DNA of 43,119 nt from the NCBI GenBank assembly GCA_014236755.1, contig JACCKY010000013.1, positions 1-43,119 of the forward strand. Reading direction: 5' to 3'. This document shows positions 1 to 28,415 of the stretch, one piece after another (positions within the stretch are counted from its first letter, which is position 1; the number at the start of each line of letters is the position of its first letter). The stretch is from Candidatus Petromonas tenebris. GTDB taxonomy: Bacteria; Bacillota; Clostridia; Peptostreptococcales; Caminicellaceae. The position numbers and the translations under genes were made by a program. Under the pieces are notes generated by a model. It worked only from the letters and a program-made list of their open reading frames with translations. It was not told the origin of the DNA and did not search any database.

Positions 1-120
1 AACGTAGAAATGGAAATAGAACTTATCACACCAATAGCAATAGAAGAGGGACTAAGATTTGCGATTCGTGAAGGTGGTAGAACTGTAGGAGCAGGTGCTG
101 TTGCTAAAATTATAGAGTAA
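1..120 (+). CDS. tuf: Elongation factor Tu, C-terminal end (partial)
   Basis: The first 40 codons are open from base 1 and end in TAA at 118-120. The peptide is the last part of EF-Tu domain 3, with the conserved ending [22 protein letters not shown]-Tu delivers aminoacyl-tRNA to the ribosome as a GTP complex. The start and GTPase domain lie upstream of the window. tuf just ahead of the S10 operon is the usual order in Firmicutes, but here a terminator and a new promoter separate the two units. Confidence 0.97.
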
Positions 121-137
121 TCACTTTAAGAAAATGA

Positions 138-181: not shown

Positions 182-238
182 GAATAAAGTAGGATTTGCA
201 TAAGAAAAATTTAAAATTCTGAATAATTAATTAAGGGC

Positions 239-16294: not shown

Positions 16295-16321
16295 AAATAC
16301 AATAAATTAAAATATAAATTC

Positions 16322-16595
16322 TTTGAACAGGAATAGTAATCAGAATATCTTGCTTATAGCGAGTCGGAGTTGGTGGAAGTCCGATAGAAAGATGTCTGAT
16401 GAATGGGCCTGGGAGAAGCTAGGTGAAATCATTATAAAAGTAGCCGTAGCCGGGGGTTTCCCGTTATAGAAACAGGATATCGAGATTTATACAGAATCTC
16501 CGTATCTGGAAAGAGAAATAGCATAGAGCTATTTAATCAGGGTGGTACCGCGGAAAAAAGCCTTTCGTCCCTTAATAGGGGTGAAAGGCTTTTTT
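16322..16595 (+). ncRNA. T-box riboswitch, tryptophan-specific
   Basis: The leader has the AGTA bulge motif near 16332, a GGTGGAAG-type apical loop near 16372, and the stem I distal strand GATGAATGGGCC. The specifier triplet there is TGG (16404-16406), a Trp codon. The T-box proper, AGGGTGGTACCGCG, lies at 16539-16552. The terminator stem follows (16554-16571 with 16578-16595), ending in a T-run. Uncharged tRNA-Trp should stabilise the antiterminator and switch on trpP, which agrees with the gene downstream. The tRNA-end pairing element is TGGT (16543-16546). Confidence 0.93.
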
Positions 16596-22350: not shown

Positions 22351-23073
22351 GTGATAATAATAATACTAAAAAAGAAGTGGATAATATGGGGCCTAATTAT
22401 ATTGTTAATAATATGTATAGCCTTAGTTTTACTGGGTAGCTATAACGAAATAGTAAAGGCTTCATCCCTGCCAACATTGAGAAAAGTAATAATTATTGAC
22501 CCGGGCCACGGTGGCGTTGATGGAGGAGCAGTTGGAATAAATACAGGCGTCCACGAGGATAAAGTAAATCTAGAAATTGCATTAAGGGTGAAGGAATTTT
22601 TAGAAGAAAGTGGAAGTTTAGTATTAATGACTAGGGATAAGGATGTAGGTCTGTATACTGAAGATGGCAGTATAAGAAAGAAGAAAAATGAAGACTTGAG
22701 AAACAGAAAGAAACTTTTTGATGAAAGTAATGCAGACTTAGTTTTAAGCATACATCTGAACAGCTTTCCTCAGTCTCAATATTACGGAGCTCAGACTTTT
22801 TATCCCAGCAACTCAGAAAACAGCAAATTACTTGCTGAACTGATTCAAGAAGAGCTAATAAGGGTATTAGATAATGGAAATACTAGAAAGGCAAAGGCTA
22901 AAAATGATGTATATATACTTCAGGATATAGAAGTCCCTACGGTGATTGTAGAATGTGGTTTTTTATCAAATCCCAAAGAAGAATTATGGCTGCAAGATCC
23001 TGAATATCAGGAAAAAATTGCTTGGAGTATATATGTAGGAATACTTAGATATTTTCATAGGATAAATGTATAG
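22351..23073 (+). CDS. cwlD: N-acetylmuramoyl-L-alanine amidase CwlD
   Basis: A 240-residue Amidase_3 protein with one N-terminal membrane segment (about residues 10-30). Zinc ligands and catalytic Glu are visible: IIDPGHGGVDGG (H53), NLEIA (E75), LSIHLNSF (H135) and VIVECGFLSNP (E201). CwlD removes side peptides from cortex peptidoglycan so that muramic delta-lactam can form, which is needed for germination. The length and single membrane anchor fit CwlD. The start is GTG 22351 after GGGGAGGG. Confidence 0.92.
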   Translation: MIIIILKKKWIIWGLIILLIICIALVLLGSYNEIVKASSLPTLRKVIIIDPGHGGVDGGAVGINTGVHEDKVNLEIALRVKEFLEESGSLVLMTRDKDVGLYTEDGSIRKKKNEDLRNRKKLFDESNADLVLSIHLNSFPQSQYYGAQTFYPSNSENSKLLAELIQEELIRVLDNGNTRKAKAKNDVYILQDIEVPTVIVECGFLSNPKEELWLQDPEYQEKIAWSIYVGILRYFHRINV

Positions 23074-23075
23074 TG

Positions 23076-23126
23076 AGCTTTTAAAACTTAATCTATGATA
23101 ACATTATAGATTAGGTTAAGCTTTAT
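23076..23126 (+). terminator. Terminator-like hairpin after cwlD
   Basis: AACTTAATCTAT (23085-23096) pairs with ATAGATTAGGTT (23106-23117) with one G-U. A further 5 bp, AGCTT with AAGCT, lies outside a small bulge. Only a short, broken T-tail follows, so termination may be partial. Confidence 0.55.
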
Positions 23127-23161
23127 TGCTTTATATTTTATGGAAAGGGGATAATATAACT

Positions 23162-24571
23162 ATGGGGAAAATATTGGCTGGATATTTAATGCCCCACCCT
23201 CCAATTCTATTGAAGGAAATTGGAAAAGGACAAGAAAGGAAGATAAATAAAACTTCAGAAGCTATGAAGGCAGTAGCAAGAGATATCAAGAGTAAAAAAC
23301 CAAAAACTATCATACTTATTACTCCCCATGGCCCATTGTTCAGCGATGGCATTGCCATATCAATTAAAGATGAACTTAAGGGAGACATGTCCCAGTTTGG
23401 AGCATGGGAAGTAAAAATTGTTAAAGACAATAATCTTAAACTGGTTAATAAAATTATTGCTTATGCAGGGCAAAAAGGTATTCCATGCGCTAAGATAAAT
23501 GAGGAATTGGCTAAGGAGTACAATTTGTCAACAAAACTGGACCATGGAGCTATTGTTCCATTATATTTTATAGATAAGGAGTATATACATTATAGATTGG
23601 TCCACATAACCTACGGACTTCTTTCCTATGAGGACCTATATGCCTTTGGTAAAGTAATACAAGAAGTTGTAGAAGGAGAACAGGAAGATGTGGTAGTAAT
23701 AGCAAGTGGCGATTTATCCCATAAACTCACAGAGGACGGACCCTATGGGTATAATCCGGCGGGGGGAAAATTTGATAAATTAATCATGGATCTATTAACA
23801 AGCTATAAGCCTGAGGAAATAATTGGCATAGATAAGGAATTGTGTGAAGAAGCTGGAGAATGTGGCTTGCGTTCCATAGATATTATGATGGGATCATTAG
23901 ACGGATACGATATATATTCAGAGCTCTTATCCTATGAAGGACCCTTTGGAGTAGGCTATGGAGTGGTAAAGCTGGAGATAGGAAAGAGAAATAGAGATAA
24001 GGAGATTTTAGACAAGTTATATAATAATCGGAAAAACAGAATTAGAAAAATCAGAACAAATGAGGATAATTATATAGCTCTTGCAAGGAAAAGTCTTGAG
24101 CATTATGTTAAAAATCACAGTAAACTCCCAATAGATAACAATGTGTCTGAAGAGATGTTGAATCAAAAAGCCGGTACCTTTGTATCTATAAAGAAGGATG
24201 GCAAACTAAGAGGATGTATAGGGACGATCGCACCTACTACGGGAAGCATTGCTGAAGAAATTATCGAAAATGCCATAAAGGCAGGTACTGAAGATCCAAG
24301 ATTCTATCCTGTAGAGGAAGACGAGCTTGATGCTCTTGTATATTCAGTGGATATTTTGAAGGATCCAGAGCCTGTTGAATCTATAGATGAGTTGGATGAG
24401 AAAAAATATGGTGTTATAGTAAGTAGCGGAATGAGAAGGGGCTTACTTCTTCCAAACATAGAGGGAGTGAATTCGGTAGAGGAACAGATAAGAATAGCCT
24501 TAAGGAAGGCAGGGATAAGCCCAAATGAAGGATACAATATAGAAAGATTTGAAGTTGAGAGACATAAATAA
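23162..24571 (+). CDS. amrA: AmmeMemoRadiSam protein: Memo-like/LigB domain fused to AMMECR1 domain
   Basis: A 469-residue two-domain protein. Residues 1-275 are a Memo/class III extradiol-dioxygenase-like domain with histidines at H12 (LMPHPP), H56 (TPHGPLF), H128 (LDHGAIVP) and H187 (SGDLSH). Residues 300-469 are an AMMECR1 domain with its hallmark LRGCIGT (349-355). In other genomes the two domains may be separate (AmrB and AmrA). The radical SAM partner follows. The biochemical role is unknown. ATG 23162 is chosen, about 12 bases after AAAGGGG; TTG 23126 would add 12 unconserved residues. Confidence 0.92.
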   Translation: MGKILAGYLMPHPPILLKEIGKGQERKINKTSEAMKAVARDIKSKKPKTIILITPHGPLFSDGIAISIKDELKGDMSQFGAWEVKIVKDNNLKLVNKIIAYAGQKGIPCAKINEELAKEYNLSTKLDHGAIVPLYFIDKEYIHYRLVHITYGLLSYEDLYAFGKVIQEVVEGEQEDVVVIASGDLSHKLTEDGPYGYNPAGGKFDKLIMDLLTSYKPEEIIGIDKELCEEAGECGLRSIDIMMGSLDGYDIYSELLSYEGPFGVGYGVVKLEIGKRNRDKEILDKLYNNRKNRIRKIRTNEDNYIALARKSLEHYVKNHSKLPIDNNVSEEMLNQKAGTFVSIKKDGKLRGCIGTIAPTTGSIAEEIIENAIKAGTEDPRFYPVEEDELDALVYSVDILKDPEPVESIDELDEKKYGVIVSSGMRRGLLLPNIEGVNSVEEQIRIALRKAGISPNEGYNIERFEVERHK

Positions 24572-24577
24572 ATGACT

Positions 24578-24795
24578 TGTGGATAAAATGTTGATAAAAT
24601 CTTTAGGGAATAGGTCGAAAGTAGCAAATACCATAGGTTGCTGCACTTAAAGTTATCCACATGTTTATCCATAAGTATATTAATTTATTAATATGGATAT
24701 GTGGACAAGCATTTATGATTCACTACTTATGGGAAATTTAATGTAAACAATTTGTCAATAAAATTTATCCACATATCAATAGAACTTGTGGATTA
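24578..24795. promoter_or_regulatory. DnaA box cluster between amrA and amrS
   Basis: Three exact DnaA boxes (TTATCCACA or its complement) lie at 24578-24586 (-), 24653-24661 (+) and 24765-24773 (+). One-mismatch copies lie at 24589-24597 (TGTTGATAA), 24665-24673 (TTATCCATA), 24700-24708 (TGTGGACAA) and 24787-24795 (TGTGGATTA). The middle, around 24672-24695, is nearly pure A/T. The cluster fills the 249-base gap. dnaA and dnaN are not near, so it is more likely a DnaA titration or regulatory site than the replication origin. Confidence 0.75.
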
Positions 24796-24820
24796 AGTGG
24801 GATAAAGTAGGAGGTGTAAG

Positions 24821-25819
24821 ATGTGTCTATATCAAAATTTAAAAGAAGTCTATTTTTATCAAAAATTGAAAGATAATAAGGTCAAATGTGAAGTTTGTCC
24901 CCACTACTGTATAATTTCTCCAAACCAAACGGGCATCTGTAGAGTAAGAAAAAATATTGACGGAAGTTTATTTGCATTAAATTATGGTAAAGTTGCCGCC
25001 TTTAATATAGACCCTATAGAAAAAAAGCCACTCTATCACTTTTATCCGGGGCAAGATATCCTTTCTATAGGAAGTTACGGATGTAATTTAAAATGTGATT
25101 TCTGTCAAAATTATACGATAGCCCATGGGGAGCCAAATGGTACTTATACAGAGTCGGAAAAGATTGCAGATATTGCTTGCAGGGAGGAAAACAATATAGG
25201 TATAGCCTACACTTATAATGAACCATTTATGTGGTATGAATTCGTAAAGGACTCAGCACAGATGGTTAAGAAGAAGGGTAAAAAGAATGTAATGGTAACT
25301 AATGGGTATATCAATGAGGAATCTCTAAAAGAACTTCTTCCTTTCATTGATGCCATGAACATAGATTTAAAAGCATTTTCAGATGAATTTTATAAAGACA
25401 TATGTAAAGGAGCTGTTAGACCAGTTTTAAAAACTATTAAAAGAGCGGTCAAGTATTGTCATGTAGAGGTAACTACATTACTAATAGATAATTTAAACAC
25501 GTCAGAAAAAGAAATAGATGCTTTATCTCGGTGGATAGCATCTATCGATAGGGATATACCTTTGCATTTAACAAGGTACTATCCTGCATATAAAATGAAC
25601 ATTCCCCCCACTTCTATAGAGAAAATAAAAAAATTGAAGGATATAGCGCAAAATTATTTAAATTACGTGTACATAGGAAATGTCGTAGGGATAGATAGAA
25701 ATACATACTGTCCCCAGTGTAGTGCCCTATTGATTAACAGAGAAACTAAAGTAGTAGCACAAAATATTAAATCAAGTAAATGTACAAATTGTGGGAGGAA
25801 AGTAAGCATTACTATTTAA
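24821..25819 (+). CDS. amrS: AmmeMemoRadiSam system radical SAM enzyme
   Basis: A 332-residue radical SAM protein. The cluster motif is CNLKCDFCQN (C88, C92, C95). The N-terminus carries four more cysteines (C23, C26, C30, C40), the PflA-like pattern of this family, and the C-terminus ends in a zinc-ribbon-like CPQC...CTNC pair. It is the third partner of the Memo/AMMECR1/radical SAM trio; the substrate is unknown. ATG 24821 follows TAGGAGGTG. DnaA boxes lie directly upstream and could affect its expression. Confidence 0.93.
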   Translation: MCLYQNLKEVYFYQKLKDNKVKCEVCPHYCIISPNQTGICRVRKNIDGSLFALNYGKVAAFNIDPIEKKPLYHFYPGQDILSIGSYGCNLKCDFCQNYTIAHGEPNGTYTESEKIADIACREENNIGIAYTYNEPFMWYEFVKDSAQMVKKKGKKNVMVTNGYINEESLKELLPFIDAMNIDLKAFSDEFYKDICKGAVRPVLKTIKRAVKYCHVEVTTLLIDNLNTSEKEIDALSRWIASIDRDIPLHLTRYYPAYKMNIPPTSIEKIKKLKDIAQNYLNYVYIGNVVGIDRNTYCPQCSALLINRETKVVAQNIKSSKCTNCGRKVSITI

Positions 25820-28339: not shown

Positions 28340-28415
28340 GGGGATGTAGCTCAGTTGGGAGAGTACCTGAATGGCATTCAGGGGGTCGTGGGTTCAAGTC
28401 CCATCATCTCCACCA
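28340..28415 (+). tRNA. tRNA-Ala (anticodon GGC)
   Basis: A 76-nt cloverleaf with all arms: acceptor GGGGATG/CATCTCC, anticodon stem CCTGA/TCAGG with loop ATGGCAT giving anticodon GGC, and T arm GTGGG/CCCAT with TTCAAGT. The G3-U70 pair (28342 with 28409), the main alanine identity element, is present. The discriminator is A and CCA is encoded. It reads GCC and GCU. The gene stands alone with its own promoter and terminator. Confidence 0.97.

What the first reader, a model, noticed from the sequence alone, without database searches (positions are those of the whole stretch)
24572..24820. DnaA box cluster inside the AmmeMemoRadiSam locus
At least three exact DnaA boxes and four one-mismatch copies, on both strands, lie within 218 bases around an A/T-only middle. 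This is far denser than chance. dnaA/dnaN are not nearby, so it resembles the DnaA-binding clusters that titrate DnaA in Bacillus, or it may tie amrS expression to DnaA.
Basis: partly seen in the sequence, partly recalled or inferred. Interest (0 to 1): 0.8.

Follow-up and report, generated by a model that had tools for sequence, protein, structure and literature searches.

The report
DnaA-binding site cluster outside the origin
A precisely spaced array of binding sites for the DNA-replication starter protein DnaA sits away from the replication origin, and relatives have kept it while the genes around it came and went, so it probably helps control when the chromosome is copied rather than a nearby gene.

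Summary
The gap 24572-24820 holds seven DnaA boxes with at most one mismatch (three exact) in 218 bp; 400 shuffles never exceeded four, or one exact. The array is a conserved element with fixed order, strand and spacing (0-, 11-, 75+, 87+, 122-, 174+ degenerate, 187+, 209-). Its box 1-3 geometry occurs once per genome in 18 of 198 genomes of the order, with no hit for the reversed control. Boxes are conserved and the DNA between them is not (1.25-1.80 versus 0.43 bits).

It is not tied to amrS. In the 16 of 18 loci examined the shared neighbour is cwlD. Relatives without AMMECR1/amrS at this place keep the array right after cwlD, in three cases before a convergent gene; three carry remnants of lost genes beside it.

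The genome has similar clusters at oriC, tsaD (gcp) and hpf. The tsaD one lies where Bacillus subtilis has a strong DnaA region. Most likely this is an extra-origin DnaA-box cluster that sequesters DnaA. DnaA binding is strongly inferred; titration is likely but unproven. Nearest known kinds: Bacillus DnaA-box clusters; E. coli datA/DARS as functional analogues.

The parts
24578..24586 (-). DnaA box 1, TTATCCACA (exact)
   Evidence: box present in all 22 sequences tabulated, but every retrieval pattern used required it
24589..24597 (-). DnaA box 2, TTATCAACA, 11 bp after box 1 (tandem)
   Evidence: within one mismatch in 20 of 22 (not in G004 and G095); partly fixed by the retrieval pattern
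24653..24661 (+). DnaA box 3, TTATCCACA (exact), 73-75 bp after box 1 in all 22 (retrieval patterns allowed only a few bp of play)
24665..24673 (+). DnaA box 4, TTATCCATA, 12 bp after box 3; the same non-consensus word in 12 of 22 (8 of 15 f11, 4 of 4 f1 tabulated)
   Evidence: within one mismatch in 16 of 22; not part of any retrieval pattern
24676..24694 (.). A/T-only stretch between boxes 4 and 5; sequence not conserved among relatives
24700..24708 (-). DnaA box 5, TTGTCCACA, 119-124 bp after box 1; the same word in 15 of 22
   Evidence: a minus-strand box at 115-128 in 22 of 22, 0.005 expected per sequence from the window background; not part of any retrieval pattern
24752..24760 (+). Degenerate box 6, TTGTCAATA (three mismatches), 13 bp before box 7, the register of box 6 in f11
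24765..24773 (+). DnaA box 7, TTATCCACA (exact)
   Evidence: a box in this register in 15 of 15 f11 sequences tabulated and G000, not in G002-G004 or f8
24787..24795 (-). DnaA box 8, TAATCCACA, 22 bp after box 7 (21-22 in the 8 relatives that have it)
22351..23073 (+). cwlD-type N-acetylmuramoyl-L-alanine amidase (gene name recalled), the gene shared by all 16 array loci examined
   Evidence: Pfam Amidase_3
23126..24571 (+). LigB-like/AMMECR1 fusion gene lying between cwlD and the array here; absent or a remnant in several relatives
   Evidence: Pfam LigB + AMMECR1
24821..25819 (+). amrS radical-SAM gene downstream of the array; absent, elsewhere or a remnant in several relatives
   Evidence: Pfam Radical_SAM

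Best explanation
The gap holds a conserved extra-origin DnaA-box cluster anchored at the cwlD (rplM-rpsI-cwlD) locus of this clostridial order. DnaA binds the strong boxes (1, 3, 7) and spreads cooperatively to the tandem and weaker boxes (2, 4, 5, 6, 8), forming one ordered complex. The locus lies in the early-replicated part of the chromosome (0.13-0.16 of the contig from dnaA in four relatives). It is therefore duplicated soon after initiation, doubling a DnaA sink (or DnaA-remodelling site) and holding free DnaA below the re-initiation threshold. It works together with sister clusters at tsaD and hpf. Shown: box array, chance test, conserved geometry, independence from neighbouring genes, co-occurrence with oriC-type boxes. 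Inferred: DnaA binding in vivo, cooperative complex, and the negative effect on initiation (from B. subtilis cluster deletions).
For: Density far above chance. The box 1-3 geometry occurs once per genome in 18 of 198 order genomes, 0 reversed-control hits; three f1 relatives missed by that pattern have the array after cwlD and the fourth keeps boxes 3-4-5 in register. Box columns are conserved while spacers drift: box means 1.25-1.80 bits, spacer 0.43; box 4 alone, free of retrieval and register choice, p = 3e-6 against spacer, and a box 5 in 22 of 22. cwlD upstream in 16 of 16 loci examined. Persists when AMMECR1/amrS are absent or decayed. Followed by a convergent gene in three f1 genomes, as is f3's own cwlD cluster in 8 of 8. 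The same 9-mer makes up the oriC clusters of this genome. Sister clusters: tsaD (19 of 30 order loci) and hpf (3 of 3 genomes examined, spacing 12/9/136-137). B. [quoted passage not shown] deleting six non-origin clusters gives early initiation (PMC5295017 and PMC13220808 passages).
Against: No binding data for any of these genomes. The element is not universal: 0 of 14 f4 genomes examined, 5 of 13 f3 genomes and one of 16 f11 genomes (G060, one weak box) lack a cluster after cwlD, and 28 of 29 class-level loci lack one, so it is dispensable. Nearness to oriC may only reflect where ribosomal-protein genes lie; only four genomes gave distances for this geometry, and in G120 it is on the other arm. 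B. subtilis clusters had a strong effect only when all six were removed, and the same review says they play no significant role in initiation (PMC5295017). In the f8 genomes boxes drift to TTTTCCACA, mostly not matched by their oriC boxes, and boxes 4, 6, 7 and 8 are not found.
Confidence: 0.62

Rival explanations
1. The boxes are a DnaA-controlled regulatory region for the neighbouring gene (amrS here, hydrogenase genes in others), tying its transcription to DnaA level or replication stress.
For: Several B. subtilis DnaA clusters lie at promoters and regulate genes (PMC8203912 and PMC4447404 passages). In G000, f8 and many f11 genomes a co-directional gene follows the array. Transcription control can coexist with titration.
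Against: The downstream gene is not conserved (amrS, Fe-hydrogenase genes, others). In G002, G003 and G004 the array lies between cwlD and a convergent gene. AMMECR1 remnants (G044 clear; G100 18 residues, weak) and an amrS remnant (G001) flank an intact array or array core. No promoter-like site above shuffle expectation around the gap (2 found, mean 2.9).
Confidence: 0.17
2. A datA- or DARS-like nucleoprotein switch: the ordered array changes the nucleotide state of DnaA (hydrolysis or ADP release) rather than merely soaking it up.
For: Spacing, orientation and even the deviations from consensus of single boxes (box 4 ..CATA in 12 of 22, box 5 TTG.. in 15 of 22) are shared between families f1 and f11, more order than a simple sink needs. 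Short conserved patches lie outside the boxes (after box 7, and in the box 2-3 spacer). Relative distance to dnaA 0.13-0.16 lies between datA (0.10) and DARS2 (0.21) of E. coli (PMC5010248 Table 1 passage).
Against: datA and DARS2 need IHF; B. subtilis lacks IHF and Hda homologues (PMC13220808 passage). I know of no nucleotide-switch element from this phylum (recalled, not searched for as such), and nothing here measures nucleotide state.
Confidence: 0.16
3. A secondary or relic replication origin.
For: Box cluster beside an A/T-rich stretch; DnaA boxes of the oriC type.
Against: The A/T stretch is not conserved; this genome has two box clusters at rpmH-dnaA-dnaN in the usual bipartite arrangement. 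No DnaA-trio search was made.
Confidence: 0.02
4. A structured leader RNA of amrS; opposed boxes pair as stems.
For: Opposed boxes can pair: 15 consensus pairs in the 9 sequences folded.
Against: All predicted pairs are box-to-box; the covariation term is unfavourable (+0.61) and one pair has a compensatory change. No Rfam family there at gathering threshold. The downstream gene is not conserved.
Confidence: 0.01

Closest known systems
B. subtilis extra-origin DnaA-box clusters (DBCs; Okumura et al. 2012, not held, seen only as cited in passages of two reviews)
   Same: Multi-box clusters of the same 9-mer outside oriC; this genome also has one next to tsaD (gcp), the site of B. subtilis DnaA region 4.
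   Different: This one is at cwlD, a place not among the top DnaA regions in the part of Table 1 that I saw (PMC4447404). Its box geometry is conserved across families, a comparison I did not make for Bacillus.
E. coli datA
   Same: Five-box non-coding cluster near oriC (relative distance 0.10) whose box spacing matters (PMC4585315, PMC5010248 passages).
   Different: datA needs an IHF site; none was looked for here, and nucleotide hydrolysis is untested.
E. coli DARS1/DARS2
   Same: Small cores of DnaA boxes with conserved chromosomal position (passages).
   Different: Three-box core plus IHF/Fis sites in DARS2; rejuvenation activity untested here.
Bipartite oriC of Clostridioides difficile and B. 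subtilis
   Same: Same box word and mixed orientations (PMC7561715 passages).
   Different: No dnaA/dnaN beside it and no conserved A/T element.

Membership tests
Extra-origin DnaA-box cluster (DBC) | At least three DnaA boxes with average spacing under 100 bp (definition quoted in PMC7561715) | tested here: met
   Seven boxes with at most one mismatch in 218 bp
Extra-origin DnaA-box cluster (DBC) | Outside oriC | tested here: met
   dnaA-dnaN and its two clusters are on contig C23, not in the window's contig; 0.13-0.16 of the contig from dnaA in four relatives
Extra-origin DnaA-box cluster (DBC) | Bound by DnaA | not testable with these tools
   Sequence and conservation only
Extra-origin DnaA-box cluster (DBC) | Loss advances replication initiation | not testable with these tools
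   Known for B. subtilis from review passages
datA | IHF site between two essential DnaA boxes | not tested
   No IHF-site or IHF-gene search was run
datA / DARS | Promotes ATP hydrolysis on, or ADP release from, DnaA | not testable with these tools
   Biochemistry needed
DnaA-regulated promoter | Boxes at the promoter of a conserved target gene | tested here: not met
   Downstream gene varies; between cwlD and a convergent gene in G002, G003 and G004
oriC | Adjacent to dnaA/dnaN | tested here: not met
   dnaA is on contig C23, the window is contig C74
oriC | DNA-unwinding element with DnaA-trio | not tested
   Only noted that the A/T stretch is not conserved

The most novel reading that the evidence does not exclude
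This is an ordered DnaA-remodelling element of clostridia: a datA/DARS-like switch that works without IHF. Its multi-box grammar is conserved nearly to the base pair across families while neighbouring genes turn over. With the tsaD cluster, found in the same place in many phylum members, it forms a chromosomal system that sets initiation timing throughout this phylum.
Probability: 0.16. Interest if true: 0.82.

Novelty: new member of a known kind. Interest (0 to 1): 0.6.

Why it matters
How clostridia and their relatives limit re-initiation is, as far as I know, largely open; the one C. difficile origin paper that I found (passages) leaves DARS/datA-like elements open. A precisely defined element with strict grammar, natural presence and absence between relatives, and only a few sister sites in the genome makes the DnaA-titration model directly testable in this group. 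The tsaD cluster, present at the same place in 21 of 29 phylum loci examined and in B. subtilis, suggests that extra-origin DnaA clusters may be an old and general part of replication control in this phylum rather than a Bacillus oddity.

Tried and rejected

Carried as an AMMECR1-array-amrS cassette by transfer: in the AmrS tree (30 rows) the label 'cluster upstream' needs five changes against 9.7 for shuffled labels, so it is clustered; but G000 is unresolved and does not join its family member G004; undecided.

Change of DnaA reading specificity in f8 to match TTTTCCACA: f8 DnaA has Q where the others shown have R in the basic loop. Counting back from P423 and D433 (positions given in PMC7561715) along the E. 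coli sequence as I recall it puts this at 401, not R399, and f8 oriC still holds TTATCCACA/TTATCAACA; rejected.

RNA structure, promoter, Rfam: nothing. The first alignment was invalid because six loci were on the minus strand; redone. In one search the wrong hit was used for G003; corrected.

Literature (8 searches): none of the listings showed a paper joining DnaA boxes with cwlD (0 papers) or one that I recognised as on non-origin clusters in Clostridia. The key Bacillus paper is not held and most subscription papers are missing, so 'not in print' is not claimed.

Selection effects: 18 of the 22 tabulated sequences were found with a pattern fixing parts of boxes 1-3, the other four with looser patterns on boxes 1 and 3. 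In some searches the registers of boxes 5 and 7 were set by those boxes themselves, which inflates their bits; G095 was dropped (21 rows), and box 6/7 values rest on 15 rows. Box 4 is free of both effects. The phylum tsaD loci are the 29 most similar of 117 matches, own genome left out; one of the 21 positives (L278) has only weak boxes. In one search, G105 and G115 were left out of the 18 because little flank was available. Five of the 14 f4 loci had under 650 bp held after cwlD.

Full report
What is there. The gap between the AMMECR1-type gene (stop at 24571) and amrS (start at 24821) holds three exact TTATCCACA boxes and four one-mismatch copies in 24578-24795, plus a degenerate site at 24752-24760. 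In 400 dinucleotide shuffles of the window the best 218-bp stretch had four such boxes (2 shuffles), against seven observed; exact boxes reached one, against three observed. The own genome (2.94 Mb, 120 contigs) has 60 exact boxes. Seven places hold two or more within 200 bp, against 0.25 expected by random placement: the two oriC clusters around dnaA, one next to tsaD, one next to hpf, one between dnaB and ilvD, this one, and one pair inside ilvB coding DNA (ilvB named by recall). One-mismatch boxes were not mapped genome-wide.

It is conserved. Of 97 amrS loci whose upstream 500 bp (or what was held) were scored, 13 had three or more boxes (12 genomes). In the main group these fall in the same register. 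Over the 22 array sequences tabulated, box positions are 0 (-), 11 (-), 73-75 (+), 85-87 (+), 119-124 (-), and, mainly in f11, 182-185 (+), 194-198 (+), 216-219 (-); the window has 0, 11, 75, 87, 122, 174 (degenerate), 187, 209. A pattern fixing only parts of boxes 1-3 and their spacing found exactly one place in each of 18 of 198 order genomes and none for the reversed control. Boxes not in that pattern are conserved all the same. Box 4 has 1.25 bits against 0.43 for spacers, p = 3e-6 on its own; a minus-strand box 5 lies at 115-128 in 22 of 22, where 0.005 per sequence is expected. Around boxes 1-4 the window is 27-45% identical to the other 20 sequences outside the boxes, and 75-94% at the boxes (boxes 1-3 are partly fixed by the retrieval). 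Even deviations from consensus recur between families f1 and f11: box 4 is TTATCCATA in 12 of 22, box 5 is TTGTCCACA in 15 of 22. This is the pattern of a protein-DNA assembly with graded sites.

It does not belong to amrS. Seven of the 18 genomes (G014, G025, G036, G044, G052, G077, G089) have no AmrS match at E <= 1e-60, and in G100 amrS is about 213 kb from the array. The gene shared by 16 of 16 loci examined is cwlD (G105 and G115 not examined); rplM and rpsI, where the stretch reached far enough, lie upstream of it (seven loci each; also G001-G004, for G001, G002, G003 and G004). In genomes without the AmmeMemoRadiSam genes there, the array starts 30-75 bp after cwlD (303 bp in G044). In G044 that interval holds a frameshifted remnant of the AMMECR1 C-terminus (E = 3e-13), and G100 has a possible 18-residue remnant (E = 0.003). 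In the family member G001, AMMECR1 matches over 470 residues, boxes 3-4-5 are in register, and only a 38-residue piece of amrS was found (E = 7e-7). In the family members G002, G003 and G004 the array lies between cwlD and a convergent gene. In f12 genome G015, cwlD is missing from the locus, yet a cluster of other spacing sits between AMMECR1 and amrS, next to rplM-rpsI. The neighbours come and go; the array stays.

Range. By family label: f1 5 of 5 (G001 with a partial array), f11 15 of 16 (14 by pattern, G095 a variant, G060 with one weak box), f8 3 of 3 with a reduced set, f12 2 of 2 with their own geometry, f3 8 of 13 examined with their own geometry, f4 0 of 14 examined, f7 0 of 1, f10 0 of 2 (G124 keeps two boxes 74 bp apart). 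Among the 29 class-level cwlD loci examined (the best of 93 genomes with a match, own left out), one has a cluster. That the order contains Romboutsia is inferred from a shared contig length and position between G152 and NZ_LT629850.1; the window's organism was not identified.

Sister clusters. Own hpf cluster: the spacing 12, 9, 136-137 recurs in G066 and G110 (3 of 3 examined). tsaD cluster: three or more boxes close together downstream of tsaD in 19 of 30 order loci (my count from the listing; L219 was truncated) and in 21 of 29 phylum loci by a mechanical rule of three boxes in 150 bp (the 29 are the most similar of 117 matches, and L278 counts on weak boxes only). In B. [quoted passage not shown]). 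Own locus L001 has an ABC-F-type gene and acpP on one side and tsaD, convergent, on the other.

Position. In four genomes with dnaA and the array on one contig, the array is 0.127, 0.146, 0.129 and 0.159 of that contig away from dnaA (G014, G036, G100, G120). In G120 it is on the other arm by the direction of dnaA, so the arm is not fixed (inference from coordinates). E. coli datA lies at 0.10 and DARS2 at 0.21 (PMC5010248, passage). Since rplM-rpsI genes tend to lie near the origin (recalled), this may be a by-product.

Mechanism. Shown: box array, conserved grammar, independence from neighbouring genes, same box word at oriC, sister sites. Inferred: DnaA binds the strong boxes and spreads to weaker tandem boxes; because the site is replicated early, its duplication lowers free DnaA after initiation. 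The analogy is B. subtilis, where removing six non-origin clusters causes early initiation and one cluster put back partly relieves it (PMC5295017, passages; PMC13220808, passages; the original paper was not available). PMC5295017 also says that the Bacillus clusters play no significant role in initiation control. A datA/DARS-like nucleotide switch is not excluded and would explain the strict grammar better than a plain sink. The promoter rival fails on neighbour turnover and placement before a convergent gene; the RNA and second-origin rivals have little support.

Verdict. A real, conserved extra-origin DnaA-box cluster at a place I did not find described: a new member of a known kind.

Noticed in passing
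L001:2979-3114 (own genome C13) and loci L193-L222, L258-L286: DnaA-box clusters directly downstream of tsaD in 19 of 30 order loci and 21 of 29 phylum loci examined, the same place as the B. subtilis gcp-ydiF DnaA region; possibly phylum-wide.
   Followed up: partly
L002:1862-2027 (own genome C13), L249, L251: DnaA-box cluster between flgN and hpf with spacing 12/9/136-137 conserved in G066 and G110.
   Followed up: partly
L005:2392-2912 (own genome C47): DnaA-box cluster between the replicative helicase gene dnaB and ilvD; four boxes at 2392-2445 overlap the 3' end of a small ORF (1803-2432, acetyltransferase-like by recall), two more at 2876 and 2904. Conservation not tested.
   Followed up: no
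L183, L184, L187, L190-L192, L247, L248: Family f3 has a different cluster right after cwlD (nearly all boxes on one strand), followed by a convergent gene in 8 of 8.
   Followed up: partly
L160, L161, L162 (f8 genomes): Array boxes drift to TTTTCCACA while oriC boxes mostly do not; f8 DnaA has Q in place of R in its DNA-binding loop (E. coli 401 by my count).
   Followed up: partly
window 24774-24782 and the box 2-3 spacer 24598-24652: Short conserved patches outside the boxes in relatives (ACATAA-like after box 7; AGTAAAATCAA-like in the spacer), possibly weak DnaA sites or another protein's site; both weak in the window itself.
   Followed up: no
L001:3375-4316 (minus): Own tsaD aligns to a relative's 340-residue protein from end to end but is 28 residues shorter; family and homologue matches stop near residue 260-265, so the gap is towards the C-terminus.
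   Followed up: no
window 16314-16575 and 28340-28412: A T-box leader and a tRNA gene (Rfam).
   Followed up: no
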